Both the position numbers and the translations under genes were made by a program. Shown one piece after another: positions 3,701-25,575 of a stretch of DNA of 64,000 nt. Origin of the DNA: Thermodesulfobacteriota bacterium (GTDB lineage Bacteria > Desulfobacterota_D > UBA1144 > Nemesobacterales > UBA2774); the NCBI GenBank assembly GCA_040754335.1, contig JBFMCV010000002.1, forward strand, positions 310,001 to 374,000. Direction: 5' to 3'. Below the pieces are notes generated by a model that worked only from the letters and a program-made list of their open reading frames with translations, had not been told where the DNA came from and made no database searches. How positions within the stretch are numbered: position 1 is the stretch's first letter; the number at the start of each line of letters is the position of its first letter.

Positions 3701-4253
3701 CTCGGCACGCGGACTTTAGCATGACTCACGGCGGAAGCGCCGCTGCATATCGCTTGCCTGCGTGCAAACTATAGCCGCATGGAATTCCGCGAGCCTCTCC
3801 GGATTCTTCACCCTTGTAATTTCAATAGGGATTAGTGTATAATGGGGACTTAAAGAGCCCGGGGGGACAAATCCAAAGTTCTAGTCTCGTTAAAGGAGGA
3901 TTTGATAAAAGAGGTATGGAGAGTCTCTTCCCCCCGGGCCCAAACTCGACTATTACGATAATAGTATAGCAGACTTTTTCCGGCTGTAATCATTTTTCCT
4001 TCTTCCCGCCCGGCGTTCTCATAAACCCCCTCGGCAATCCTTGCTTGTATATACGTCTTCGGGCGTCCATCCGGTTCTTGTCCCGCGTAAATATTAAATG
4101 TGTCCGTTGTAGTTTTATCTGACACAGTGCGGAAATATTTCACGCACCCTTAATAAAAAGAATCTAATATATATGGTGTATAGGGGGTGTTCGGGCGCTG
4201 GCACGGGATTTGCTCCCTTGATGAATAAATCCATAGGCAGGAGGCGATAAGCT
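3701..4253 (+). other. Intergenic region with long-loop GC-rich hairpin
   Basis: No convincing gene is seen in these 553 bases. A perfect 11-bp inverted repeat (GCCCGGGGGGA at 3857-3867 and its complement at 3929-3939) encloses a 61-base loop that contains an AAAGGAGGA ribosome-binding-like sequence at 3892-3900, but no properly spaced start codon follows. An AT-rich stretch at about 4153-4180 could hold the promoter of the following dehydrogenase gene. Confidence 0.5.
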
Positions 4254-5306
4254 ATGAGGGCGAACGTATTCAAGGACAAGAACAAGGTCGGTCTCGAGGA
4301 AAAGTCCGTACCAAAGGCCGGGCCGGGCGAGGCTGTGGTCAAGGTCACGCTCACGACCATTTGCGGGACGGACGTGCACATAATGAGGGGGGAATACCCC
4401 GTGAGGCAGGGACAGACCATAGGGCACGAGCCCGTGGGCGTGATACACGAGCTCGGGGACGGCGTTACGGGGTACGAGGTCGGCGAAAGGGTCGCGATTA
4501 ACGCGATCACCCCGTGCGGCATGTGCGAATACTGCCTGTCCGCTAACTGGGCTCAGTGCGGCGGGTTCCTGGGCGGCTGGAAGATGGGGAACACAATCGA
4601 CGGCTGTCAGGCCGATTACGTGAAGATCCCGAGCGCGATGGCTAACCTCGCGAGGATACCCGACGAGCTTTCGGACGAGGACGTTCTCCTGACGACGGAC
4701 ATATTCTCGACCGGGCTTTCGGGAGCGGAGAGCGCCGACATACAGGTGGGCGACATGGTGGCGGTATTCGGGCAGGGGCCTATCGGGCTGGGCGCGACCG
4801 CGGGGGCGAAGCTCAAGGGAGCGTCTCTAATCATTGGCGTAGACACGATACCCTCGCGCATGGAGATGGCGAAGAAGATGGGGGCCGATGTCGTGATAGA
4901 TTTCAAAAAGACCGACCCGGTGAATGAGATACTCGACATGACGAAAGGGCGGGGGGTCGACGTCGCGATAGAGGCGCTCGGCACACAGACGACGCTTGAG
5001 AACTGCGTCAAGGCTACGCGCGTGGGCGGGACGATTTCGAGCTTAGGTGTATACCCTGCGGACATGCAGAATATCGGCGTCCCGAACCAGGCATTCGGGT
5101 TCGGCATAGCGGACAAGAACATTGTGTCCACTCTCTGCCCGGGAGGTAAGGAGAGGATGCGCCGGCTCATGGACTTAGTAAAGAACGAGCGCGTCAACCT
5201 CCGCCAGCTCATCACGCACAGGTTTTCGCTGGATGAGATCGAGGAGGCCTACAAGCTCTTCTCGTCCCAGGCCGACGGCGTGATAAAGGTGGCTATACAG
5301 CCGTAG
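4254..5306 (+). CDS. Zinc-dependent medium-chain alcohol dehydrogenase
   Basis: A 350-residue NAD(P)-dependent medium-chain dehydrogenase that oxidises an alcohol or reduces an aldehyde in the cytoplasm. The GroES-like domain comes first, with catalytic zinc ligands Cys37, His58 and Glu59 (GHEPVGV) and a complete structural zinc lobe, Cys88, Cys91, Cys94 and Cys102. The Rossmann domain follows with the glycine motif GQGPIGLGA near residue 174 and an acidic residue after the next strand (IGVDT), which suggests NAD rather than NADP. An AGGAGG ribosome-binding site lies at about 4240-4245, nine bases ahead of the ATG. It stands alone between noncoding regions, so the context gives no substrate. 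Family assignment is firm; specificity is not. Confidence 0.9.
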   Translation: MRANVFKDKNKVGLEEKSVPKAGPGEAVVKVTLTTICGTDVHIMRGEYPVRQGQTIGHEPVGVIHELGDGVTGYEVGERVAINAITPCGMCEYCLSANWAQCGGFLGGWKMGNTIDGCQADYVKIPSAMANLARIPDELSDEDVLLTTDIFSTGLSGAESADIQVGDMVAVFGQGPIGLGATAGAKLKGASLIIGVDTIPSRMEMAKKMGADVVIDFKKTDPVNEILDMTKGRGVDVAIEALGTQTTLENCVKATRVGGTISSLGVYPADMQNIGVPNQAFGFGIADKNIVSTLCPGGKERMRRLMDLVKNERVNLRQLITHRFSLDEIEEAYKLFSSQADGVIKVAIQP

Positions 5307-12758: not shown

Positions 12759-13709
12759 ATGTTTGAAGCAATCATTGTCATAATCGGTCTCTCGCTCTTC
12801 GAGATAATATCGAGCATAGACAACGCCGTCGTGAACGCGCACGTGCTCGCCACGATGACTGACCGGTTCAGACGGTTCTTCCTCATATGGGGCATGCTCA
12901 TAGCCGTGTTCCTGCTCAGGGGAGTGCTCCCGTTCCTCATAGTGTGGATCGCCAACCCCAACTTATCGTTCATCGAGCTTTTCGAATTCACTTTCTCGGG
13001 GGACAGCAAGCAGATAGAGAGCTCTCTCGCGGAGTCGAAAGCCTATCTCCTCGTGGGCGGCGGGATGTACCTCGTCCTCGTATTCCTCGCTTGGCTGTTT
13101 CTGGAGGAGAAGAAGTACACGTTCCTCGTAGAGCACTTCATACGCAGGCACTCGGTCTGGTTCTACGCCATAACTTCCATATTCTTCACGGCAATCGTAT
13201 ATATATCCCTCCAGTTCGACCCGTTCCTGGCGTTCGCCGCTTCGATCGGCACCACTGCCTTCTTCATAACCGACGGGTTCAAAAAGAACGCGGAGGAGAA
13301 AGAAAAGGAGCTCCTCGACCCCAACATGAGCGGGTGGAGCAAGGTCTTTTATCTGGAAGTGCTCGACGCCTCGTTCTCCATAGACGGCGTGATCGGGGCG
13401 TTCGCTTTCACGATGTCTGTGCCGCTCATATTGATCGGAAACGGCATAGGCGCGTTCGTCGTGAGGGAGGTTACAGTCCGCGGCATAAACTGGATATCGA
13501 AATACGCATACCTCAAGAACGGGGCGATGTACTCTATCGGCATGCTTGGCGCGATAATGATACTCGAGAGCTTCGGCGAGGAGATACCGTTCTGGATCGC
13601 GCCGCTTAACACGGTCCTTCTGCTCGCTATATTCCTCTTCCTCTCATGGCGCGAGATCAAGCTCGCAGAGAAGCTCGAAGCCGAGGGGAAGGGAGAGGGT
13701 GCAGTTTAA
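12759..13709 (+). CDS. DUF475 integral membrane protein (TerC superfamily)
   Basis: A 316-residue polytopic membrane protein with about eight hydrophobic segments. The segment SLFEIISSIDNAVVNA near the N-terminus and its counterpart FYLEVLDASFSIDGVIGAF in the second half are the paired acidic membrane motifs of the TerC/DUF475 family, which includes tellurite-resistance-like and metal-efflux proteins, some of them linked to manganese export. Length is normal for the family. The base composition returns to the high-GC style of the chromosome here, so the island boundary lies in 12630-12758. No metal-binding regulator is nearby, so the substrate is unknown. Confidence 0.85.
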   Translation: MFEAIIVIIGLSLFEIISSIDNAVVNAHVLATMTDRFRRFFLIWGMLIAVFLLRGVLPFLIVWIANPNLSFIELFEFTFSGDSKQIESSLAESKAYLLVGGGMYLVLVFLAWLFLEEKKYTFLVEHFIRRHSVWFYAITSIFFTAIVYISLQFDPFLAFAASIGTTAFFITDGFKKNAEEKEKELLDPNMSGWSKVFYLEVLDASFSIDGVIGAFAFTMSVPLILIGNGIGAFVVREVTVRGINWISKYAYLKNGAMYSIGMLGAIMILESFGEEIPFWIAPLNTVLLLAIFLFLSWREIKLAEKLEAEGKGEGAV

Positions 13710-13897
13710 ATTAACCGTCGCTCGCATTTCCCCCGGCCCTGTTTGATCCGCCGGACCAGCTTTTTGTATGTCACGGATATGCGGTATCACTCATAACTGT
13801 GCTTCTCACGGAGCATATTCCAAGTCTTCGGTTCCCCCCCCGGCGCTAACACCGGAGCATTGCGGACTGTATAATAATCTTCCTGCGGGGGTAGGCT

Positions 13898-15256
13898 ATG
13901 ACGGAAGTTAAAAGCGAGGCGTCTCATCTAAGCGTTCTCGTCGTCGACGACGAGGTGAATATAAGGAAGACCCTCACACTCTGCCTCGAATCGCGGGGCC
14001 ATGCCGTAACGGCGGTAAGCAACCCAGCCGACGCGGTGTCCGAAGCGGGGAGACGCGTATTCGACCTCGCTTTCGTCGACCTCAGGCTCGGGACTGAAAG
14101 CGGCCTCGACCTCATCCCTCAGCTCCTCGCCTCGTGTCCCTGGATCAAGATCGTGGTCGTCACGGCTTACGCTTCCATAGACACCGCGGTCGAAGCGATG
14201 AAGCGGGGCGCAGCCGATTACATACCCAAGCCGTTTACTCCCGAGCAGGTCGATATCGTGACGGAGCGCGCCGCGGCCGTGAGGGGCATGGAGCAGCGCA
14301 TAGAGGCGCTCGAGGAGGACATCAACAAGCTCCGCCCGGAGATATCGTTGGAATCGAGGCACCCCGCCATGCAGCGCGCACTCGAGCTTGCACGGAGGGC
14401 GGCGCCGAGCGACGCCGCGATTCTCATCAAAGGGCCGAGCGGTACGGGCAAGACGGTCCTCTCGCGCGCAATACACGGCTGGAGCAGGAGGGCGGACAAG
14501 CCGTTCGCCGTGATATCCTGCCCCTCGCTCAGCCCCGAGCTCCTGGAGAGCGAGCTCTTCGGTCACGTAAGGGGGGCGTTCACCGGGGCCGTATCGGATA
14601 ACCCCGGGAGGATCGCTGCCTCAGAAGGCGGGACGCTCTTTCTAGACGAGATAGGAGACCTGCCGCTCCAGCTTCAGCCGAAGCTTCTCCGCTTCCTTAA
14701 CGACAGGGAGTACGAGCGGGTGGGAGACCAGAAGACGCGGAGAGCGGACGTCAGAATAATATCCGCCACGAACACGGACCTCGAAAAAGCCGTAAAGGTG
14801 GGGAAGTTCCGCGAAGACCTCTTTTACAGGCTGAACGTAATTGAGATTACTCTCCCCTCGCTCTCCGAGCGCCCGGACGACCTTGAAGGGCTTGCCGCGA
14901 ACATGATCTCATTCTTCGGCGCCCAGAACCACAAGAGACTCCGGGGGTTCACGCCGGCGGCGATGACGGCTATCAGGAATTATTCCTGGCCCGGCAACAT
15001 AAGGGAGCTCAGGAACGTGATAGAGAGGGCTGCGATTATATGTCAGGGGGAGGTCGTGGGAGTGGAGAATCTGCCCGATTCCATCTCCCCGCGCAAGGCC
15101 CCTCCCGGACTCGGAGACCCCGTCCCCTTGAGCGTGATAGAGGAGAGCCACATACGCCGCGTAGTCGCCGAAACGAAGACCCTTCAGGAGGCCTCTGAGA
15201 TTCTCGGGATCGACCAGGCGACCTTATGGCGGAAGCGCAAGCAGTACGGCATCTGA
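13898..15256 (+). CDS. NtrC/AlgB-type sigma-54-dependent response regulator
   Basis: A 452-residue transcription activator with three domains in standard order. The receiver domain has the acidic pair DD (17-18), phospho-acceptor Asp61 (FVDLRLG) and conserved Thr/Lys (VVTAYAS; IPKPF). The AAA+ domain has Walker A GPSGTGKT (about 178-185), the sigma-54 contact loop GAFTGA (about 226-231), Walker B LFLDEIGD and an arginine-finger region. The C-terminal Fis-type helix-turn-helix is seen in EASEILGIDQATLWRKRKQYG. It contacts sigma-54 holoenzyme and opens the promoter. It lies directly upstream of a KinB-like kinase and the kdp genes, and a perfect sigma-54 promoter sits between it and the kinase, so it most likely controls that unit. 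No kdpE gene is present in the window. Confidence 0.92.
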   Translation: MTEVKSEASHLSVLVVDDEVNIRKTLTLCLESRGHAVTAVSNPADAVSEAGRRVFDLAFVDLRLGTESGLDLIPQLLASCPWIKIVVVTAYASIDTAVEAMKRGAADYIPKPFTPEQVDIVTERAAAVRGMEQRIEALEEDINKLRPEISLESRHPAMQRALELARRAAPSDAAILIKGPSGTGKTVLSRAIHGWSRRADKPFAVISCPSLSPELLESELFGHVRGAFTGAVSDNPGRIAASEGGTLFLDEIGDLPLQLQPKLLRFLNDREYERVGDQKTRRADVRIISATNTDLEKAVKVGKFREDLFYRLNVIEITLPSLSERPDDLEGLAANMISFFGAQNHKRLRGFTPAAMTAIRNYSWPGNIRELRNVIERAAIICQGEVVGVENLPDSISPRKAPPGLGDPVPLSVIEESHIRRVVAETKTLQEASEILGIDQATLWRKRKQYGI

Positions 15257-15282
15257 ACCGCCGGACGCGATTCCCTGCAGCC

Positions 15283-15295
15283 TTGCAAAATGCAA
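15283..15295. promoter_or_regulatory. Candidate upstream activating sequence for the NtrC-type regulator
   Basis: A perfect palindrome TTGCA-AAA-TGCAA lies about 100 bases upstream of the -12 element of the sigma-54 promoter, the usual distance for an enhancer site. Only one copy is seen, so the assignment is tentative. Confidence 0.4.
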
Positions 15296-15380
15296 TATAT
15301 ATTCTGCCCCCTCATTGAGAATTACAAGGGCGAGTAAACGCAACTGCCTGTTATTATTACATATTAATCATACAAATACC

Positions 15381-15397
15381 GGGCACGTATCTTGCAT
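15381..15397 (+). promoter_or_regulatory. Sigma-54 (-24/-12) promoter of the kinase-kdp operon
   Basis: The sequence GGGCACGTATCTTGCAT matches the -24/-12 consensus, with GG at 15382-15383 and GC at 15394-15395 exactly ten bases apart. Transcription would start near base 15407, about 10 bases ahead of the kinase ATG at 15418. An NtrC-type activator gene lies immediately upstream. Confidence 0.8.
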
Positions 15398-15417
15398 TTC
15401 TACTTTACCAATATCCT

Positions 15418-17286
15418 ATGATAGGCATACGTCAAAAACTAGCCCTCGGGTTCGGGGGCCTGCTGGCCATAGTCATCGTCATCGGTCTCCTCACCATGTC
15501 GCGCATTAAGGAGCTGGGCTATGCGATCGACGTGATTCTCAAAGAAAACTATCTGAGCGTCGTCGCCTGCCAGGACATGAAGGAGACGCTTGAGCGCATG
15601 GACAGCGGGATCCTTTTCACGCTTGCAGGCAACAACGAAGAGGGGCTGAAACTCATCGGCGAGAACACGGGAAAGTTCGGGTCGGCTCTCGAGTCCGAGC
15701 TCAACAACATAACCCTTCCGATGGAGGGGGAAAAAGCCCGTGAAATAGAAAAGCTCTTCGGGGAATATACCAAAAGCATACCGCTCGTAACTGACACGTC
15801 ACGTCCCTTTCAGGAACGAAACGAGGCGTACTTCTCGACGCTGCTGCCTCTGTTCCAGAAGATAAAATCACTCGCGCACGAAATACTGATAATGAACCAG
15901 AAGAGCATGAGCGACGCAAACGACGAGGCGAGAGCACTCGCCGCGTCCACGTACAGGCAGATGCTTACCGCCATGATAGCGTCGGCAGTGATAGCGGTCC
16001 TCTTCGGTTATCTCACCCACAGGTGGGTGCTCAGGCCGATCAACACGCTTATCGAATCTACCGGGGAGATACGCAGGGGGAACCTCGACGTCGTCATCGA
16101 ATCGGGCTCGCACGACGAGATAGGGAAGCTCTCGGAATCGTTCAACGAGATGACGGCGGCCCTCAGGCGGGTGAGGAAGAGCGAGAGGATGAACCTCATA
16201 CGTCTCAGGAGGGCGATGGAGGAGGTCGTTAAGGCCCTGCCTGACGCGATCGCAATTCTCGATACTGAAGGTCGGGTGGAGGTCTCGACGGATACCGCCC
16301 AGCGCATGTTCGGCCTGAAGCCGGGCGTGCTCGTAAAGGACCTCGGCTACGAATGGATGCCGGGTCTCATCGGCAAGGCGCTCGCCGAGGACAGGGTCGT
16401 GGACCTGGATTCAAAGAACGGATACGTGCAGCGCTTCTCCGAAGGCCGCGAGTATTTCTTCAGGCCCATCGCCGTGCCCATTCCGGTCAAGCCCAAGTCG
16501 GGCGAGCATACGGGCTCCGCGATAATACTCAATGACGTTACTCAGATCCACGAGCAGGCGGAGCTGAAGCGGGACGTCGTCTCTACGGTTTCCCATCAGT
16601 TGAGGACGCCGCTTACTTCGCTCCGCATGTCGATACATCTTCTGCTGGAGGAGAAAGTAGGCGGTCTCAACGAGCAGCAGGCTGAGCTCCTCGTGGCTGC
16701 AAGGGAGGACAGCGAGAAGCTCGTGAGCATTCTGAGCGGACTGCTCGATCTCAACAGAATGGAGTCGGGCAAGACGAACATCGATATCGGGAGCTATTCG
16801 CCGCATACGCTCGCGAGGGAGGGGATAGAGCCCTTCCACATCGAGGCCAGGGACAAGGGCGTCACTGTCATAAACGCAGTGCCGGAAGACCTCCCCGAGG
16901 TGCAGGCCGATCTGTTCAGGATACGCCATGTGTTCGCCAACCTTATTTCCAACTCGTTGAGGTTCACAATGCCCGGCGGCGTGATCATAGTCAGGGCGGA
17001 GCAAGAAGGGCGCTTTATCCGTTTCTCTGTCGAGGATACGGGGGAAGGGATTCCGCCCGAACACCTGCCGAGGATATTCGATCAGTTCTACCGCGTGCCC
17101 GGCCAGGACGAGAAATCCGGGGTGGGTCTCGGTCTCGCGATAGTGAAGGAGATAGTGGAGGCGCACGGAGGAGCGGTCGGCGTGAAAAGCGAGGCGGGGA
17201 GGGGATCCTCGTTCGAGTTCACGCTGCCCCTGGAACAACGATCTACTGAAATTCACGGTCACGAAATACGCAGTAAGAATGCGTGA
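15418..17286 (+). CDS. KinB-like membrane sensor histidine kinase
   Basis: A 622-residue inner-membrane kinase. Transmembrane helix 1 spans about residues 8-26, a periplasmic helical sensor domain about 27-175, helix 2 about 178-198, then HAMP (about 199-255), a PAS domain (about 270-370), HisKA with the phospho-acceptor His in TVSHQLRTPL (about residue 394) and HATPase_c with the N box NLISNSLRFT, G1 box EDTGEGIP and G2 box GVGLGLAI. The order and length match KinB, the partner of AlgB, and the upstream regulator is AlgB-like. The start has no ribosome-binding site because the predicted sigma-54 transcript begins only about 10 bases ahead. It is followed after 14 bases by the kdp genes, suggesting that it senses potassium limitation, osmotic or envelope state. 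Confidence 0.88.
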   Translation: MIGIRQKLALGFGGLLAIVIVIGLLTMSRIKELGYAIDVILKENYLSVVACQDMKETLERMDSGILFTLAGNNEEGLKLIGENTGKFGSALESELNNITLPMEGEKAREIEKLFGEYTKSIPLVTDTSRPFQERNEAYFSTLLPLFQKIKSLAHEILIMNQKSMSDANDEARALAASTYRQMLTAMIASAVIAVLFGYLTHRWVLRPINTLIESTGEIRRGNLDVVIESGSHDEIGKLSESFNEMTAALRRVRKSERMNLIRLRRAMEEVVKALPDAIAILDTEGRVEVSTDTAQRMFGLKPGVLVKDLGYEWMPGLIGKALAEDRVVDLDSKNGYVQRFSEGREYFFRPIAVPIPVKPKSGEHTGSAIILNDVTQIHEQAELKRDVVSTVSHQLRTPLTSLRMSIHLLLEEKVGGLNEQQAELLVAAREDSEKLVSILSGLLDLNRMESGKTNIDIGSYSPHTLAREGIEPFHIEARDKGVTVINAVPEDLPEVQADLFRIRHVFANLISNSLRFTMPGGVIIVRAEQEGRFIRFSVEDTGEGIPPEHLPRIFDQFYRVPGQDEKSGVGLGLAIVKEIVEAHGGAVGVKSEAGRGSSFEFTLPLEQRSTEIHGHEIRSKNA

Positions 17287-17300
17287 GGAGGCATAAGGAA

Positions 17301-17384
17301 ATGCTTACGTTTATAATGCTGGCTCTCGGCCTGGGGGTCTTTATACTGCTCGGGGCCATCACGATTTTGCTCGAAAAAATATAG
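17301..17384 (+). CDS. 27-residue single-span membrane peptide upstream of kdpF
   Basis: This short frame encodes one hydrophobic helix (MLTFIMLALGLGVFILLGA...) ending in a charged tail, LLEKI. An AGGAG stretch at 17286-17291 and an AAGGA just before the ATG give possible ribosome binding. It is fitted without wasted space between the kinase stop and kdpF: its stop codon overlaps the TAGGAGG ribosome-binding site of kdpF. Its size and location resemble KdpF-type accessory subunits, but it lacks the KdpF tail. It may be a second small stabilising subunit; function unknown. Confidence 0.6.
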   Translation: MLTFIMLALGLGVFILLGAITILLEKI

Positions 17385-17393
17385 GAGGCTCAA

Positions 17394-17474
17394 ATGCTCT
17401 GGATTGCGACTTTAGTCCTGATTTTCTGTTTCATATATCTGGTGTACGCGATTATTAAACCCGAGCGTTTCTAG
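17394..17474 (+). CDS. kdpF: KdpF, small accessory subunit of the potassium ATPase
   Basis: A 26-residue membrane peptide with one helix and the typical KdpF ending YLVYAIIKPERF. KdpF binds the KdpABC complex in the inner membrane and stabilises it. It has its own AGGAGG site (17384-17389) and is followed 12 bases later by kdpA, whose ribosome-binding site AGAGGAGA overlaps the end of this gene. Confidence 0.85.
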   Translation: MLWIATLVLIFCFIYLVYAIIKPERF

Positions 17475-17486
17475 AGGAGAGTAAAA

Positions 17487-19169
17487 ATGTCATTTCTTTT
17501 TATAACGATAATTATAGCTATACCTGTCCTCCTTTCATGGCCTGTCGGGAAGGCCATGAAGTGGGCGATGGACCCTGCTGAGCCCGAGAAAAAATTCAGG
17601 GGCCGTTTCACGAAGCTGTTCCGCGGCGTCTCAGGAGGACTCATCGAAAAGGAGCAGGACTGGAAGGCGTACTCGCTCTCCTTGCTCCTGTTCAATGCAG
17701 TGATGTTCCTGGTCGTATTCGCGATCATGGCGGCACAGCAATACCTCCCCCTCAACCCGGACGCAAAGGAGGCGATCGAGCCGAGCCTCATATTCAACAC
17801 GACGGCCTCGTTCACGTCGAACACGAACCTCCAGCACTATTCGGGCGAGGTTTCGCTGAGCTATTTTTCCCAGCTCTTCGCTCTCATGTGGCTCCAGTTC
17901 GTCTCGGCCGCGACCGGCATAGCGGCGCTTACGGCGCTTTCGAGGGGACTTGCGGGTAAGCCCGGGCTCGGGAACTTCTACCGCGACCTGCTTAACGCCA
18001 CTTTGTTAGTTCTTCTGCCGATCGCTGCGGTCGTCGCCGTACTCCTTGTATTGGGAGGCGTGCCCATGACATTCAACGGCGCTGCAACTGCGGAAACGCT
18101 CGAAGGCGTCGTGCAGACTATAGCGAGGGGGCCTGTCGCGGCGTTCGTCACTATAAAGCAGCTCGGGACGAACGGCGGAGGGTTCTTCGGTCCCAACTCC
18201 ACGCACCCCTTCGAGAACCCGACATTTTTCACTAACATTGTCGAGTGCGTGAGCATACTGCTCATTCCAATGGCGTCCGTCTGGATGTTCGGCAGGATAA
18301 CGAAGAGGATGCGCCATGCGGCGGTGATCTTCACGGTCATGGCTGCGATCCTTATAAGCACCGTCGGCCTCGCCGTCTATTTCGAGAGCGCTCCTACTCA
18401 GGCCTTTACGGGCCTTCCGGTCGAGAGCTCCATGAACCTAGAGGGAAAGGAGATGCGCTTCGGCACGTCGGCGGGTCCGCTCTGGGCGACCTTCACCACG
18501 GCCACGAGCAACGGCTCCGTCGATGCGATGCACGACAGCCTGAACCCGCTCACGGGTCTTGTACCGCTCACGGGCATGTGGCTCAACGTGACGTTCGGCG
18601 GCGTGGGCGTGGGGTTTATCAACATGTTCATATATATAATCGTCGGCGTTTTCATAAGCGGCATGATGGTGGGGAGGACGCCCGAGTATTTAACGAAGAA
18701 GGTAGAGACGAAGGAAATGAAGCTCGCGCTTCTCGCCCTCTTGGTACATCCGCTGTTCATTCTCGGAGGCACTGCCCTTTTCGCCATGACAGCGTGGGGC
18801 GCGTCCACCGTTCTTAACCCCGGAGCGCACGGCTTCTCCGAGATTTTGTACGAGTTCAGCTCTGCAGCCGCTAACAACGGCTCGGGTTTCGAGGGGCTCG
18901 GGGACAACACCGTGCCCTGGAACGTCGCGACAGGGCTCGTCATGCTCTTGGCCCGCTATATACCGATAATACTTCCGCTCGCGATCGCAGGTTCGCTTGC
19001 GCTGAAGAAACCGGCGCCCGAGACTTCGGGCACGCTCCGGACCGATTCAGCGCTTTTCGGTTTCGTGATCCTCGGGACTGTGGTGCTGATCGGCGCGCTC
19101 CTGTTCATGCCGGTCGCGGTGCTCGGCCCTATAAACGAGTACGTAACTACTGCAGGGATGTATAAGTAA
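17487..19169 (+). CDS. kdpA: KdpA, potassium-binding channel subunit
   Basis: A 560-residue polytopic membrane protein of the SKT superfamily, close to the usual 557 residues. KdpA binds and translocates potassium for the high-affinity KdpFABC pump. Four selectivity-filter-like segments are expected; clear ones are [19 protein letters not shown]-like sequence at about residues 229-247, [12 protein letters not shown] near 112, and [11 protein letters not shown] near 464. It follows kdpF with short spacing and precedes kdpB by 41 bases, as in standard kdp operons. Confidence 0.97.
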
Positions 19170-19210
19170 ATCGTGGGATACCTTACAGCGTTAAGAGAGG
19201 AACTAAAAAC

Positions 19211-21286
19211 ATGACAGACATACAGAAAGTACATGAACTCGCGAAGCTCGAGAGGAGGAAGGTAAGGAGAGCTTCTCTCTTCGAAAGAGAGCTCGTCGAG
19301 GCCGCGGTGAAAAAGTCTTTTTCGATGTTGAACCCCGTAACCATAGCGCGCAATCCGGTTATGTTCGTTACCGAGATAGGGGCGGCCGTGTCCACGCTCG
19401 TCCTCGCATTAAATATCTATCAGAAGAGCGGGGCCGTTGTTTATACGCTTTGGGTGACGCTCATCCTCTGGATAACGGTGCTCTTCGCCAACTTCGCCGA
19501 GGCTCTTGCCGAAGCGAGGGGGAAGGCCCAGGCCGATACCCTCAGAAAGACAAGACGGAAGACAATGGCTCATAGGATGGTTAACGGAGGCATGGAAGAA
19601 GTGAGCTCGAACGAGCTCAGGGAAGGGGACGTCGTGTACGTCTCGGCCGGCGTGATAATCCCGAACGACGGGGAGATCGTAGAGGGCGTCGCCACGGTCG
19701 ACGAGTCCGCGATCACGGGCGAATCCGCTCCCGTGGTCAGGGAAGCGGGTGGCGACCGCTCGGGTGTCACGGGCGGAACCCGCGTCCTCTCCGATTCCAT
19801 AAAGGTTCAGATCACGGCCGGCGCCGGCGAATCGTTCCTCGACCGCATGATAGCTCTCGTAGAGGGCGCAATAAGGCAGAAGACGCCCAACGAGCTCGCG
19901 CTCACTGTGACCCTTGCCGGGCTGACCCTCGCGTTCCTCATGGTGACCGGCGCGCTCTATCCCATAGGCAAATACTTCGGCGTCGAGATACCGATCCCGA
20001 CGCTGGTCGCGCTCCTGGTGTGTCTTATCCCGACCACTATCGGCGCTCTGCTCGCAGCGATCGGGCTTGCGGGTATGGACCGGGCGCTTTCGGCGAATGT
20101 GTTAGCCAAGAGCGGGAAGGCGGTCGAGCTCGCGGGAGACGTGGATACGCTTCTTCTCGATAAAACCGGAACTATAACGATCGGCGACCGCCAGGCGACT
20201 GAATATTTCCCGCTGCCGGACGTTACCCGCGATAGACTTGCCGCGGCAGCCATGTACGCCTCGTTCGGGGACCTTACCCCTGAAGGAAAGTCTATCGTGA
20301 AGCTCGGCGCGGATACTCTGGGCGGCGCGGCTCCGAGAGAGGCAACGGGCGAGGTTATACCTTTCACCGCCCAGTCGCGCCTCAGCGGTCTCGATACAAC
20401 TGGCGGACGCAGGCTGAGGAAAGGGGCGCCTGACGCGATAAAGGCTTTCGTGACCCAGTCCGGCGGCTCGGTCCCCGAATCATATCAGGGAATAGTGGAC
20501 GGCATAGCTAAGGACGGAAGCACGCCCATATCCGTCGCCGAGGGGAAAGAGATACTGGGAGTCATTTCGCTCTCGGACGTGCTCAAGCCGGGGATAAGGG
20601 ACCGTATCACGAGACTCCGCGCCATGGGTCTACGCGTCGTCATGGTGACGGGCGATAACCCGCTCACAGCGGCGGCGATAGCCCGCGAGGCGGGCGTGGA
20701 CGACTTCATCGCCGAGGCCAAACCGGAGGACAAGCTCGAATACATACGGCGTGAGCAGCGCTCGGGCAGGCTCGTCGCCATGATGGGGGACGGGACCAAC
20801 GACGCCCCTGCCCTCGCGCAGGCGGACATCGGCGTCGCCATGAACTCGGGCACGCAGGCGGCGAAGGAAGCGGGCAACATGGTCGACCTCGACAGCGACC
20901 CGACGAAGCTCATCGAGGTGATAGAGATAGGGAAGCAGCTATTGATCACGAGGGGGGCGATAACCACTTTCTCCATCGCAAACGACGTGGCTAAATATTT
21001 CGCCATCATCCCCGCCATATTCTTACTCGCCATACCGGGGCTAGAAGCGCTCAATATAATGGGTCTCAGCACACCCGAGAGCGCTATACTGTCTGCGCTG
21101 ATATTTAACGCGGTCATTATACCGATACTTATACCGCTCGCTATAAAGGGGGTTAAGTACAGGCCGACGGGGGCTGAGATTCTACTGAGAAAAAACCTGC
21201 TCGTGTACGGACTCGGAGGGGTTATAGTGCCCTTCGTCGGTATCAAATTAATCGATACGGCCCTCGGTGTAACGGGGCTCTTTTAG
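19211..21286 (+). CDS. kdpB: KdpB, P-type ATPase subunit
   Basis: A 691-residue P-type ATPase that supplies energy for potassium uptake. Visible motifs are the A-domain TGES (about 164-167), the phosphorylation motif DKTGT with the acceptor Asp near residue 316, KGAPD in the N domain and the hinge [10 protein letters not shown] near residue 527. The SNK-type ion path helix with Pro-Thr-Thr-Ile-Gly is present. Its length is normal. A good ribosome-binding site, GAGAGGAAC, precedes the ATG. Confidence 0.98.
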
Positions 21287-21297
21287 GAGGCGCTATT

Positions 21298-21885
21298 ATG
21301 AAAGACAATAAAGAAAATATGGGGATAGGCATGCAGCTCGTCACCTCGGTGAGGGTCGTGGTCTTCACGATGATCGTCTGCTGCGGCCTTTACACGCTTC
21401 TCATTTTTGGAATCGGCCAGGCAGTCACTCCGTATACGGCCGATGGCTCGCTCATAACCGATGCCCAGGGCAAAGTGATCGGAAGCGAGCTCATAGCCCA
21501 GAAATTCACGCGCCCCGAGTACTTCTGGCCGAGGCCTTCGGCGTCTGATTACAACGCCGCGGGGACTGCGGGGAGCAACCTCTCCCCGGCTAACCCCAAG
21601 CTCCGCGATAGGGCGCTTGAGATAATCGGCACTATGGGGACTGCTGAGGCCGACCCCGTTCCAGCCGACCTCGTCACGGCTTCAGGCGGCGGGCTCGATC
21701 CGCATATCACATTGGAAGCCGCAAGGTATCAGGCGAAGAGGGTTGCGGATGCGCGCGGGCTCCCGGAGGAGCAAATAACGGGCCTCATCGAAAACCATGC
21801 CTTAAAAACAGGAGGGATGCTTACTCCCGAACCGCTTGTGAACGTGCTACTCTTGAATATAGAGCTCGATAAAACAGTCGAATAA
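21298..21885 (+). CDS. kdpC: KdpC, periplasmic-facing subunit of the potassium ATPase
   Basis: A 195-residue protein with one N-terminal membrane helix (about 15-37) and a soluble domain. The conserved KdpC blocks are present: FTRPEYFWPRPSA, NLSPANP, the Asp-Pro-His segment (LDPHIT) and a closing LNVLLLN. KdpC stabilises the complex and raises its affinity for potassium. It starts 11 bases after kdpB with an AGGAGG site inside the end of kdpB. Confidence 0.97.
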   Translation: MKDNKENMGIGMQLVTSVRVVVFTMIVCCGLYTLLIFGIGQAVTPYTADGSLITDAQGKVIGSELIAQKFTRPEYFWPRPSASDYNAAGTAGSNLSPANPKLRDRALEIIGTMGTAEADPVPADLVTASGGGLDPHITLEAARYQAKRVADARGLPEEQITGLIENHALKTGGMLTPEPLVNVLLLNIELDKTVE

Positions 21886-21925
21886 CAGATTACCGGGAGG
21901 AGAAGATTATGGGAGGGTCGATCGG

Positions 21926-23578
21926 ATGAACGGCAGCCGCGCAGACAGCTTCCTCCGGATGATCCGCAGGTCTCAGCGCGGGAGGCTGAAGATCTACGTC
22001 GGCTACTCGGCCGGCGTGGGCAAGACGTACGAGATGCTGCTCGAAGGCCGCCGCCTGAAGCAGGACGGCATAGACGTCGTCGTCGGGCTTGTCGAGACGC
22101 ACGGTAGGAAGGAGACCGAGGCGCTCGTCGAGGGCCTCGAGGTCATACCCAGGAAAAATGTGACATACAGGGGGATAGAGATCGGGGAAATGGACTTGGA
22201 CGCGATACTCGAGCGCCGTCCCGAGGTCGTGCTCGTCGACGAGCTCGCGCATACTAATGTCCCCGGGAGCAGGAACGCGAAGCGGTACCAGGACGTCGAG
22301 GAGATTCTTTCTGCCGGGATCCACGTCATATCCACTCTCAACGTGCAGCACCTGGAGAGCCTCTACGAGACTATAGAGCGCGCGACAGGGGTGAAGGTCA
22401 GGGAGCGGATACCCGACCGCGTCGTCGCGGAAGCGGACCAGCTCGTTAACGTGGACGTCACGACCGAGGACCTCCGCCAGCGTCTCGTCGAGGGGAAGGT
22501 CTACACGAAGGAGAGCGTCGACGCCGCGCTCGAGCATTTCTTCAAGGAGACGAACCTCGAGCAGCTCCGCGAGCTCACGCTGCGCGAGCTCGCCGCGCAG
22601 ATAGATTCCCGTAGGCGGGAGGCTCTCGACGAGGAAACGCCCTCGAGCCCCGACCAGGTGATGGTCTGCCTGAGCTCTAGGGGGCCCAACAGCGAAGCGC
22701 TTCTGCGCTACACGTCCCGGCTCGCGGGGCGTCTCAACAGGAACTGGTACGCGCTCTACGTGCAGACCTCAGGCGAGAAACCGACTGTGATAGACGCGGA
22801 GACCCAGAGGATACTCTCCAACACTCTTGCGCTCGCGCAGCAGCTGGGCGCGACCGTGTTCACGTACAGGGGCGACGACGTCGTGAAAACCATACTACAG
22901 TTCGCTAAGGAATACAGGGTCGGGCACATAGTCGTAGGCTCGACGAGGGGGAAATACCCCTATTGGAGGAGGCTCGCCGGACAGAAGAGCATCGTCGAGA
23001 GGCTCATAACCGAGAGCGAAGGGATAACCATAGTCGTCCTCGATACGAGCTCTCTGCTTGAAGACGGGACGTACAGGCCTCCCGCACGCGAGCCTGCCGC
23101 AGTAGAGGAAGAGGCACCGCCCGTCAAGCCCGAGTCTCTCTTGGCCGGGATGAAGGTCGTCTTGTGGAAGGATCAGGTGGATAAGGAAAAAGCGATGAAA
23201 GTGCTCCTCGAGACGCTCTGCCGGGATTTCCCCGAGATCAGGGAATCCGCGTGGACGGCCCTCATGGAGCGCGAGAAGCAGGGCGGCACGTTCGCGGGAG
23301 AGGATATACTCATGCCTCACGCCCGTATCCCGGGGTTAGGGCGCTCGCTGCTCGCGCTCGGCGTGGGCAAGGGGGGGATAAAGGACAGGGATTCGGGACG
23401 GGTGGCGAAGATTATGTTCCTCATGCTCTCGCCCGCCGAGGAGCCCGCGGGCCACGTCGAGCTTCTGGGGATGATCGCGAAGATGTGCCAGGAGTCCAGG
23501 TGGATGAAGGACGTGCTCGCCTCGGAAAGCCCCGAGGAGATAAGGCGTATCATCGAGGCGCACGAGAGCGCGGAGTGA
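21926..23578 (+). CDS. Kinase-less KdpD: KdpD sensor + universal stress + PTS EIIA domains
   Basis: A 550-residue soluble protein. Residues about 20-230 are the KdpD N-terminal domain, with Walker A GYSAGVGKT (about 27-35), a Walker B-like VLVDELAHTN and the STLNVQHLE block. Residues about 245-375 form a universal-stress (UspA) domain with a G-S-T-R-G nucleotide-binding segment. Instead of the DUF4118 membrane region, GAF and histidine kinase of full KdpD, the C-terminus (about 395-545) is a PTS EIIA type 2 domain, with active-site His465 in ILMPHARIPG. The gene closes the kdp operon, 40 bases after kdpC. In E. coli, EIIA(Ntr) binds KdpD and alters its activity; here the partners appear joined in one chain. 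Probable role: cytoplasmic potassium or phosphotransfer signal input to the pump or to the KinB-like kinase. Confidence 0.85.
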   Translation: MNGSRADSFLRMIRRSQRGRLKIYVGYSAGVGKTYEMLLEGRRLKQDGIDVVVGLVETHGRKETEALVEGLEVIPRKNVTYRGIEIGEMDLDAILERRPEVVLVDELAHTNVPGSRNAKRYQDVEEILSAGIHVISTLNVQHLESLYETIERATGVKVRERIPDRVVAEADQLVNVDVTTEDLRQRLVEGKVYTKESVDAALEHFFKETNLEQLRELTLRELAAQIDSRRREALDEETPSSPDQVMVCLSSRGPNSEALLRYTSRLAGRLNRNWYALYVQTSGEKPTVIDAETQRILSNTLALAQQLGATVFTYRGDDVVKTILQFAKEYRVGHIVVGSTRGKYPYWRRLAGQKSIVERLITESEGITIVVLDTSSLLEDGTYRPPAREPAAVEEEAPPVKPESLLAGMKVVLWKDQVDKEKAMKVLLETLCRDFPEIRESAWTALMEREKQGGTFAGEDILMPHARIPGLGRSLLALGVGKGGIKDRDSGRVAKIMFLMLSPAEEPAGHVELLGMIAKMCQESRWMKDVLASESPEEIRRIIEAHESAE

Positions 23579-23691
23579 TTTGGTATGCGGTATTGAACGG
23601 GATTCGCCATGCCATCTGATATAAATACCGGTCTTTCTGACCGGAAGCGCGATAAATTTTCGGCTCAGCCGCGCCTACAAAACTTGAAACG

Positions 23692-23895: not shown

Positions 23896-23977
23896 GCGAG
23901 AGTGGCGGAACTGGCAGACGCGCAGGACTTAGGATCCTGTACCTAACCGTGTGGGGGTTCGACTCCCCCCTCTCGCA
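23896..23977 (+). tRNA. tRNA-Leu (anticodon TAG)
   Basis: The acceptor GCGAGAG (23896-23902) pairs with CTCTCGC (23970-23976). The anticodon stem CAGGA/TCCTG encloses CTTAGGA, so the anticodon is TAG. The variable region is long, as in class II tRNAs, and the T arm is GGGGG-TTCGACT-CCCCC. CCA is not encoded. The 3' part from base 23925, starting in the anticodon stem, is duplicated exactly at 25299. Confidence 0.93.
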
Positions 23978-24204
23978 CATTCCACTTTTACAATTTCATA
24001 TAAGGCGACAGTGTAACGATACTTGCGATAAAATCCTGAGGTCAGTGCTAGACCGGATTCCAGAGCTTATACGTACGGCTGCACTGATTGTTCTTGGCAC
24101 TGAGCTGAGTGATCTCTGCGTCCGGCTAGTGGCAGCGGGTCGGATGTCATTCCGGGACGCTGTACGAGAGGCGAAGTGCGAAGGCGAGGAAGTGAGGACG
24201 GTGC
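23925..24204 (+). repeat. Duplicated segment, copy 1, overlapping the tRNA-Leu 3' half
   Basis: Bases 23925-24024 (100 bp) are identical to 25299-25398, and 24114-24204 (91 bp) are identical to 25485-25575. The middle part (24025-24113 against 25399-25484) is similar but diverged. The first identical block begins in the tRNA-Leu anticodon stem and runs through its 3' end plus 47 flanking bases, as expected for an attachment site used by a tRNA-targeting integrase. A hairpin-capable stretch lies at 24118-24160. One frame through the segment encodes a helical peptide with mainly synonymous differences in the middle part of the two copies. Confidence 0.85.
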
Positions 24205-24568: not shown

Positions 24569-25072
24569 ATGACAACTTCCGATAAGATTAGTTTAGGCAT
24601 TGGATTACTCACTCTTGGGGCATTTGTATTGGCGTACTGCCACCTACGCCAATCCAAAAAAGCTGCTAACTTGGATAGAGCATATCAACTAATTGATCGT
24701 TACTTTACCTATTACGCTAATTTAGAAACGGGTCCTGGGGGTGTTCTGCCACTAGAACAATTTCTTTCAAAGGAAAGACCGTCATGGACTTTATGGGCTA
24801 AGAATCGTATAGAGGAAAGGGGGTTCTTTAGAAGACTAGCTAAATATTGGGTGCAAAATTCGATAGATAAGGAAACAATCCATGATCAGATGGGGATAAT
24901 AATAATCTCCCGCTTTCATTCGATAGCTGATGATATGAAATCATCAATAGGTACAGTTTCCCCATTAATGGCCGAATGGGGAACTATGGTTAGAGAATTG
25001 GAGAGTTTTAAATCTAGGTTCGATTTCTTGAAATGGTTATATAGGGATGTTTATGGCCGTATAGATTACTAA
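24569..25072 (+). CDS. Hypothetical membrane-anchored protein (167 aa)
   Basis: A 167-residue protein with one N-terminal membrane helix (about residues 7-25, ISLGIGLLTLGAFVLAYCH) followed by a soluble helical domain of about 140 residues rich in Trp, Tyr and Phe. No family is recognised. Base composition is clearly AT-rich compared with kdp and tig genes. It is divergent from the 73-residue gene and lies between the tRNA-Leu repeats, so it is likely element-borne. No strong ribosome-binding site is visible. Confidence 0.6.
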   Translation: MTTSDKISLGIGLLTLGAFVLAYCHLRQSKKAANLDRAYQLIDRYFTYYANLETGPGGVLPLEQFLSKERPSWTLWAKNRIEERGFFRRLAKYWVQNSIDKETIHDQMGIIIISRFHSIADDMKSSIGTVSPLMAEWGTMVRELESFKSRFDFLKWLYRDVYGRIDY

Positions 25073-25298: not shown

Positions 25299-25575
25299 GG
25301 ACTTAGGATCCTGTACCTAACCGTGTGGGGGTTCGACTCCCCCCTCTCGCACATTCCACTTTTACAATTTCATATAAGGCGACAGTGTAACGATACTTCG
25401 GGCAAGGCCTCGCGGGCCATTGATAGACCGTAGTCACGAGCTAATCCGCACGGCTGCGCTGGTTGACGGTGTCGAGTTGAGGGACTCTGCGTCCGGCTAG
25501 TGGCAGCGGGTCGGATGTCATTCCGGGACGCTGTACGAGAGGCGAAGTGCGAAGGCGAGGAAGTGAGGACGGTGC
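25299..25575 (+). repeat. Duplicated segment, copy 2, with tRNA-Leu 3' fragment
   Basis: The block 25299-25398 repeats the tRNA-Leu sequence from its anticodon stem to the discriminator base plus downstream bases, without the 5' half, so it is not a functional tRNA. The block 25485-25575 repeats 24114-24204. The two copies lie 1374 bases apart at their left ends, flanking two AT-rich genes. This arrangement fits attL/attR of a small integrated element without an integrase, or a tandem series of such insertions. Confidence 0.8.

What the first reader, a model, noticed from the sequence alone, without database searches (positions are those of the whole stretch)
21926..23578. KdpD sensor domain, universal-stress domain and PTS EIIA domain in one kinase-less protein
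Seen: KdpD Walker motif, Usp segment and EIIA active-site His465 in a 550-residue chain lacking membrane helices and kinase. Known: in E. coli the EIIA(Ntr) protein binds KdpD and alters its kinase activity. Inference: a fusion of normally separate partners, which would hard-wire phosphotransferase state into potassium control.
Basis: partly seen in the sequence, partly recalled or inferred. Interest (0 to 1): 0.7.

Follow-up and report, generated by a model that had tools for sequence, protein, structure and literature searches.

The report
Potassium-pump kinase fused to PTS domain
This bacterium makes a soluble protein that joins the enzyme module known to switch off the Kdp potassium pump to a sugar-system (PTS) phosphate-relay domain, so that potassium uptake could answer directly to the cell's carbon and energy state; the same joined gene recurs in several distant bacterial phyla but appears undescribed.

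Summary
The fusion is real. ORF 21926-23578 (550 aa) carries a KdpD N-terminal domain (Pfam 317 bits), a degenerate Usp domain and a PTS EIIA-2/PtsN-like domain (58 bits, cut-off 27). His465 is the EIIA active-site histidine. There are no membrane helices and no histidine-kinase domain. 'Kinase-less' is wrong, however: the KdpD domain was shown in 2024 (PMC11018627) to be an atypical serine kinase that phosphorylates KdpB and shuts off the pump, and its catalytic residues are present here. So this is a short, serine-kinase-type KdpD with an EIIA appended. Fifteen further full fusions were found in MAGs labelled Dadabacteria, Desulfobacterota, Chlorobia, Lentisphaerae, Verrucomicrobia, Aminicenantes and Deltaproteobacteria, mostly in the same cassette: sigma-54 response regulator, histidine kinase, kdpF-A-B-C, fusion. 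His465 is invariant in 16 of 16. EI and HPr occur in 15 of 16 fusion genomes. A same-genus genome has the empty site, so the ~10 kb cassette comes and goes as a unit. Most likely mechanism (inferred): PTS phosphorylation of His465 tunes the serine kinase, adding a carbon/energy input to, or in Chlorobia replacing, c-di-AMP control. A new variant of a known kind; no description was found in the open-access papers searched.

The parts
21926..23578 (+). KdpD-Usp-EIIA fusion gene (550 aa)
   Evidence: 15 homologues
21974..22603 (+). KdpD (atypical serine kinase) domain, residues 17-226
   Evidence: PF02702 317.5 bits; fold match to 2r8r, TM 0.96
22001..22027 (+). Walker A G26-x5-GKT(32-34)
   Evidence: Invariant G26, G30-G32, K33 and T34 in 16 fusions; extended G-X5-GKT form as described for KdpD (PMC11018627)
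22238..22243 (+). Walker B D105/E106, counterparts of E. coli KdpD D109/E110
   Evidence: Invariant in 16 fusions and in the 48-row alignment
22481..22483 (+). Arg186, counterpart of E. coli R190 (adenine pair with the aromatic at 35)
   Evidence: Invariant; position 35 is Tyr here and Tyr or Phe in all fusions scored
22658..23044 (+). Usp domain (about residues 245-373)
   Evidence: PF00582 21.3 bits; fold match 7ji4, KdpD Usp with c-di-AMP, TM 0.82
23066..23128 (+). Disordered linker, residues 381-401
   Evidence: pLDDT below 50
23168..23557 (+). PTS EIIA-2 (PtsN-like) domain, residues 415-544
   Evidence: PF00359 57.8 bits; fold match to PtsN 1a6j and 3urr, TM 0.73-0.78
23318..23320 (+). 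Codon of the EIIA active-site His465
   Evidence: Invariant in 16 of 16
13898..15256 (+). NtrC-type sigma-54 response regulator, 452 aa
   Evidence: PF00158 and PF00072
15283..15295 (+). Dyad operator TTGCAAAATGCAA, 98 bp before the -24 element
   Evidence: equivalent dyads at 95-107 bp in the other 10 fusion loci
15315..15327 (+). Second, weaker dyad, 66 bp before the -24 element
15381..15396 (+). Sigma-54 (-24/-12) promoter-like site GGGCACGTATCTTGCA
   Evidence: Score 22.5 of 24; sites scoring 19.5-24 in 11 of 11 fusion loci with a held regulator-kinase gap
15418..17286 (+). Separate membrane histidine kinase (HAMP, PAS, HisKA, HATPase), 622 aa
   Evidence: two membrane helices predicted
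17301..17384 (+). Small membrane-peptide ORF, 27 aa, between the kinase and kdpF
   Evidence: Similar small ORFs in L035, L046 and L049
17394..17474 (+). kdpF, 26 aa
17487..19169 (+). kdpA
   Evidence: PF03814 710 bits; TIGR00680
19211..21286 (+). kdpB; Ser172 of its TGES motif is the counterpart of E. coli Ser162
   Evidence: TIGR01497 986 bits; TGES at 169-172
21298..21885 (+). kdpC
   Evidence: PF02669 204 bits

Best explanation
The protein is a short, soluble KdpD of the 'atypical serine kinase' type with a PTS EIIA regulatory domain on a flexible tether. SHOWN by sequence and comparison: domain order, intact serine-kinase and EIIA catalytic residues, conserved cassette, PTS enzymes in the carriers. 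KNOWN for the family: the KdpD domain phosphorylates Ser162 of KdpB (Ser172 here) and shuts off the KdpFABC pump; short KdpD/Usp proteins do this without a histidine kinase and respond to c-di-AMP. INFERRED: EI and HPr phosphorylate His465; the phosphorylation state of the EIIA domain raises or lowers the serine-kinase activity or its access to KdpB. Pump shut-off then integrates carbon/energy state (PEP, through the PTS) with c-di-AMP and, in the Chlorobia that lack c-di-AMP synthase, depends on the PTS input instead. Transcription of the cassette is handled separately by the co-encoded histidine kinase and sigma-54 response regulator acting at a promoter between their two genes. The sign of the effect (whether EIIA or phospho-EIIA activates) is not determined.
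For: Domains and active sites. Serine-kinase residues (G-X5-GKT, D105/E106, R186, aromatic 35) conserved. Function of that domain, and stand-alone short forms: PMC11018627. KdpB TGES serine present. Folds. EI and HPr in 15 of 16 fusion genomes (own genome plus 14 of 15). Own HPr keeps the active His ('LHARA') and regulatory Ser ('GKSILGV'), and own EI keeps 'TSHSAI'; HPr kinase beside ptsN. Diadenylate cyclase absent in all four Chlorobia carriers, present in 11 of the other 12. Cassette gained or lost as one unit. Sigma-54 promoter and tandem dyads. Fused EIIA domains do not group with the PtsN of their own genomes, so they travel with the cassette.
Against: No biochemistry exists for this protein. 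The model shows no fixed docking of EIIA on the kinase (pTM 0.47, disordered linker), so intramolecular control is not demonstrated. The second EIIA histidine (His510) is replaced by Gln in L046, L048 and L049. L047, nested within the clade, lost the EIIA yet keeps the operon, so EIIA is dispensable in at least one lineage. Chlorobia keep most c-di-AMP-contact residues although no cyclase was found.
Confidence: 0.55

Rival explanations
1. EIIA works on transcription: the fused domain binds the separately encoded histidine kinase (15418-17286) and changes its kinase/phosphatase balance, as E. coli PtsN does with the KdpD transmitter domain; the KdpD-Usp part only anchors it near the pump.
For: Unphosphorylated PtsN activates KdpD by contacting its transmitter (reference 59 in PMC13104625); Sinorhizobium PtsN1/2 bind the KdpD GAF domain (PMC9239096). 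A HAMP/HisKA/HATPase kinase lies in the cassette wherever the contig reaches that far.
Against: The partner kinase is not a KdpD kinase: no KdpD-type GAF or four-helix membrane unit was found. The fusion places EIIA on the serine kinase, not on the histidine kinase. L051 has a similar kinase and regulator without an EIIA on its KdpD.
Confidence: 0.25
2. EIIA is mainly a tether or dimerisation module: the kinase is controlled by c-di-AMP through the Usp domain as in Deinococcus, and His465 phosphorylation is incidental.
For: Four of five residues of the published c-di-AMP motif have counterparts (C248, S250, N255, Y278; S246 becomes R252), and cyclase is present in most carriers (PMC8214093).
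Against: His465 and its surrounding EREKQG-TF-G / PHAR motif are invariant or nearly so in 16 homologues with 53-70% overall identity. Four Chlorobia carriers lack any detected cyclase.
Confidence: 0.12
3. The EIIA domain is a decaying passenger or the fusion is an assembly or annotation artefact.
For: L047 and the L050/L051 branch lack it.
Against: Sixteen open fusions in independent assemblies, EIIA domain predicted with pLDDT mostly above 90, invariant active site.
Confidence: 0.03

Closest known systems
Short KdpD/Usp atypical serine kinase (Deinococcus geothermalis DgKdpD; D. radiodurans KdpD-N)
   Same: KdpD plus Usp domains only, serine-kinase residues kept, no histidine-kinase domain, encoded just after kdpC (PMC11018627, PMC5716572)
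   Different: Here a C-terminal EIIA domain of about 140 residues is added on a linker; transcription is under a sigma-54 regulator with the promoter between regulator and kinase genes
E. coli / Rhizobium PtsN (EIIANtr) acting on KdpD
   Same: Same EIIA family and fold, active-site His conserved; functional link between PTSNtr and Kdp (PMC13104625, PMC9239096); rhizobial ptsN2 lies inside a kdpDE gene cluster
   Different: Separate proteins there; PtsN contacts the transmitter or GAF part of the histidine kinase, which this protein lacks
Desulfovibrio vulgaris kdp operon DVU3334-3339
   Same: Response regulator, separate kinase and split K+ sensor/UspA protein in one self-regulated kdp operon (PMC3333781)
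   Different: No EIIA reported; by locus number the sensor/Usp gene lies next to the kinase gene rather than after kdpC
Na+/H+-exchanger-EIIA fusions (own genome, L002:1477-3183)
   Same: EIIA-2 domain fused to a cation-homeostasis protein
   Different: Fused to a membrane transporter instead of a kinase; its EIIA domain does not group with the one studied here
NCBIfam NF038185 'KdpD-like non-kinase potassium sensor'
   Same: Best whole-protein NCBIfam hit, residues 7-372
   Different: Scores 372 against a cut-off of 550, so not a member by that model; no EIIA in it; 'non-kinase' is now misleading for the serine-kinase domain

Membership tests
KdpD atypical serine kinase (short form) | KdpD domain with G-X5-GKT Walker A, DE Walker B and aromatic/Arg adenine pair | tested here: met
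   residues from PMC11018627
KdpD atypical serine kinase (short form) | Substrate serine in the KdpB TGES motif in the same operon | tested here: met
   KdpB Ser172; TGES is common in P-type ATPases, so weak evidence alone
KdpD atypical serine kinase (short form) | Phosphorylates KdpB | not testable with these tools
   Needs in vitro assay
KdpD sensor histidine kinase | DHp/CA (HisKA, HATPase) and membrane/GAF domains | tested here: not met
   Absent
PTS EIIA-2 family (PF00359) | Profile match above the curated cut-off | tested here: met
   57.8 bits against 27; 16 of 16 fusions match at E <= 0.01
PTS EIIA-2 family (PF00359) | Active-site His | tested here: met
   His465 invariant
PTS EIIA-2 family (PF00359) | Accepts phosphate from HPr | not testable with these tools
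   HPr and EI genes present with active residues
PtsN equivalog (TIGR01419) | Score above the equivalog cut-off | tested here: not met
   44.4 against 138.7 bits
c-di-AMP-binding KdpD Usp (PMC8214093 motif A/G/C-X-S-X-S-X2-N...Y/F) | Five contact positions | tested here: inconclusive
   Four of five present, S246 replaced by Arg252; cyclase in own genome
NF038185 KdpD-like non-kinase sensor | Score above the cut-off | tested here: not met
   372.3 against 550 bits

The most novel reading that the evidence does not exclude
A PTS-gated protein kinase for an ion pump: one soluble protein in which the phosphorylation state of an EIIA domain directly switches an atypical serine kinase that inactivates the KdpFABC potassium ATPase, combining carbon/energy state with c-di-AMP, and in Chlorobia replacing c-di-AMP altogether.
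Probability: 0.45. Interest if true: 0.75.

Novelty: new variant of a known kind. Interest (0 to 1): 0.6.

Why it matters
How the PTS and potassium homeostasis are coupled is still debated, with conflicting models in E. coli (PMC13104625). A natural fusion tells us which two modules evolution placed together: EIIA with the serine-kinase/Usp half of KdpD rather than its histidine-kinase half. If EIIA controls that kinase here, it predicts that free PtsN may also affect the KdpD serine kinase in E. coli, a question that could hardly be posed before the 2024 discovery of that activity. The protein is predicted to be soluble and complete in one chain, so the question can be tested in a tube.

Tried and rejected
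Chance or artefact fusion: rejected by 15 further open fusions. Origin from the host's own ptsN or from the exchanger-EIIA gene: not supported, fused EIIA domains group apart from both, though deep forks are weak. Usp motif as a yes/no test for c-di-AMP: inconclusive, because D. radiodurans KdpD-N also lacks the S. aureus SXS/FTAXY motif and the fusions match the E. coli-type RXXXR-X8-WXAXY pattern as well. Sigma-54 site directly before kdpF/kdpA: none convincing; it lies before the kinase gene instead. First structure model with 16 sequences was poor for the KdpD domain (pLDDT below 50 in residues 136-242) and was replaced by one with 48 sequences. Plasmid search: 436 records with KdpD, none covering 80% of the fusion. 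Literature searches for a KdpD-EIIA fusion found none; only open-access papers are held.

Full report
WHAT IS THERE. The ORF at 21926-23578 encodes 550 residues. Pfam finds KdpD (residues 17-226, 317 bits), PTS_EIIA_2 (415-544, 57.8 bits) and a weak Usp (245-341, 21.3 bits, just under its cut-off). A structure model built on 48 homologues (mean pLDDT 84.9) shows three folded domains with a disordered linker at residues 381-401. Fold search pairs them with the KdpD N-terminal crystal structure 2r8r (TM 0.96), the KdpD Usp/c-di-AMP structure 7ji4 (TM 0.82) and PtsN structures 3urr/1a6j (TM 0.73-0.78). No membrane helix and no histidine-kinase domain is present.

THE 'KINASE-LESS' POINT. Silberberg et al. 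2024 (PMC11018627, read) showed that the KdpD domain itself is an atypical serine kinase that phosphorylates KdpB Ser162 and inactivates the pump. Walker A, Walker B (D109/E110) and an adenine-binding pair (W39/R190) are required. Here Walker A is G26-x5-GKT, Walker B is D105/E106, Arg186 matches R190, and the aromatic at position 35 is Tyr (E. coli numbering minus four, by motif). Short KdpD/Usp proteins act as stand-alone serine kinases, and the Deinococcus one is stimulated by c-di-AMP. The protein is best read as such a short serine-kinase KdpD plus EIIA. The main text of that paper, which surveys KdpD domain architecture in 5,495 species, does not mention EIIA or PTS; its supplements were not available.

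HOW WIDESPREAD. One scan of 84,980 genomes returned 80 loci. Besides the window, 15 encode the full fusion: L034-L046, L048 and L049, 53-70% identical overall; L038 is cut by its contig or an early stop inside the EIIA. Their record titles name Dadabacteria, Desulfobacteraceae/Desulfobacterales, Deltaproteobacteria, Thermodesulfobacteriota, Verrucomicrobia, Chlorobiaceae/Chlorobium, Lentisphaeria and Aminicenantes; all are MAGs, so single labels may be wrong. A maximum-likelihood tree of the KdpD+Usp part puts all 16 fusions in one clade (100/99) with three non-fused rows: L047, nested inside (an apparent loss of EIIA), and the pair L050/L051. One origin followed by loss and horizontal spread is the simplest reading but is not proven (two to three label changes on the tree). 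In the window's own phylum only 2 of 58 genomes have any strong match.

THE CASSETTE. Gene order is sigma-54 response regulator, histidine kinase, small membrane ORF, kdpF, kdpA, kdpB, kdpC, fusion. Most fusion loci show the same order as far as the contig reaches; L039 is rearranged, with kdpABC divergent. In same-genus genome G002 the TerC-family gene is followed after about 50 bp by the sequence that lies right of the cassette (before tRNA-Lys/Leu). The window's 13702-23688 (about 10.0 kb) is therefore present or absent as a unit. In the gap between regulator and kinase genes all 11 loci with that gap held carry a -24/-12 sigma-54 site (score 19.5-24 of 24; scores of 20 or more occur at 1.2e-4 per position). 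They also carry two dyads related to TTGCA-N3-TGCAA at 95-107 and 64-75 bp before it; in the window the first is exact at 15283. The scoring weights are mine and the loci are related, so these are strong predictions, not proof. Desulfovibrio vulgaris DVU3334 gives a precedent for a regulator controlling its own kdp operon with a split sensor (PMC3333781).

CAN THE EIIA BE PHOSPHORYLATED? His465 is invariant in 16 of 16. HPr and EI were found in every fusion genome except the L048 MAG. In the own genome HPr has its active His and regulatory Ser and EI its active His, and rpoN-hpf-ptsN-hprK are clustered. A further EIIA exists besides the fused one in the carriers, so the fused copy is a dedicated one. 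The fused EIIA domains do not group with the PtsN of their own genomes.

c-di-AMP. Diadenylate cyclase genes occur in 11 of the 12 non-Chlorobia fusion genomes (the own genome has three; none found in the L048 MAG) and in none of the four Chlorobia. The Usp domain keeps four of five published c-di-AMP contact positions (C248, S250, N255, Y278; Arg252 for Ser246) in nearly all fusions, including Chlorobia (PMC8214093). So c-di-AMP binding is plausible but undecided. In Chlorobia the EIIA is the only recognisable input left, which is the best indirect argument that EIIA is regulatory.

MECHANISM. Inferred: EI/HPr phosphorylate His465 according to the PEP/pyruvate state; the EIIA domain then modulates serine phosphorylation of KdpB Ser172, shutting or sparing the pump. 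The direction is open: in E. coli and rhizobia the unphosphorylated PtsN acts on KdpD, in P. putida reportedly the phosphorylated form (PMC13104625). The main rival is action on the co-encoded histidine kinase.

VERDICT. New variant of a known kind.

Noticed in passing
window 13702-23688: Whole kdp cassette is absent in same-genus genome G002 (L167), where the TerC-family gene abuts the tRNA-Lys/Leu region: an empty site showing the cassette comes and goes as one ~10 kb unit.
   Followed up: yes
window 23925-23990 and 25299-25364: The 3' part of tRNA-Leu and following bases (at least 66 bp) are repeated exactly 1374 bp downstream, an attachment-site-like duplication bounding a small insert with an unassigned ORF (24569-25072, no Pfam match).
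   Followed up: partly
window 17301-17384: A 27-aa membrane-peptide ORF between the kinase gene and kdpF, with counterparts in L035, L046 and L049; possible extra Kdp subunit.
   Followed up: partly
L002:1477-3183 (own genome C1): A Na+/H+-exchanger-EIIA fusion in the same genome: EIIA is wired both to a cation/proton antiporter and to the Kdp kinase, mirroring E. coli PtsN acting on YcgO and KdpD.
   Followed up: partly
window 4199-4214: A perfect-scoring sigma-54 -24/-12 site (TGGCACGGGATTTGCT) just before the alcohol-dehydrogenase-like gene at 4254.
   Followed up: no
L047:8001-9146: A Desulfobulbaceae relative nested in the fusion clade that has lost the EIIA domain; no EIIA remnant was seen in the three forward frames after the stop.
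   Followed up: partly
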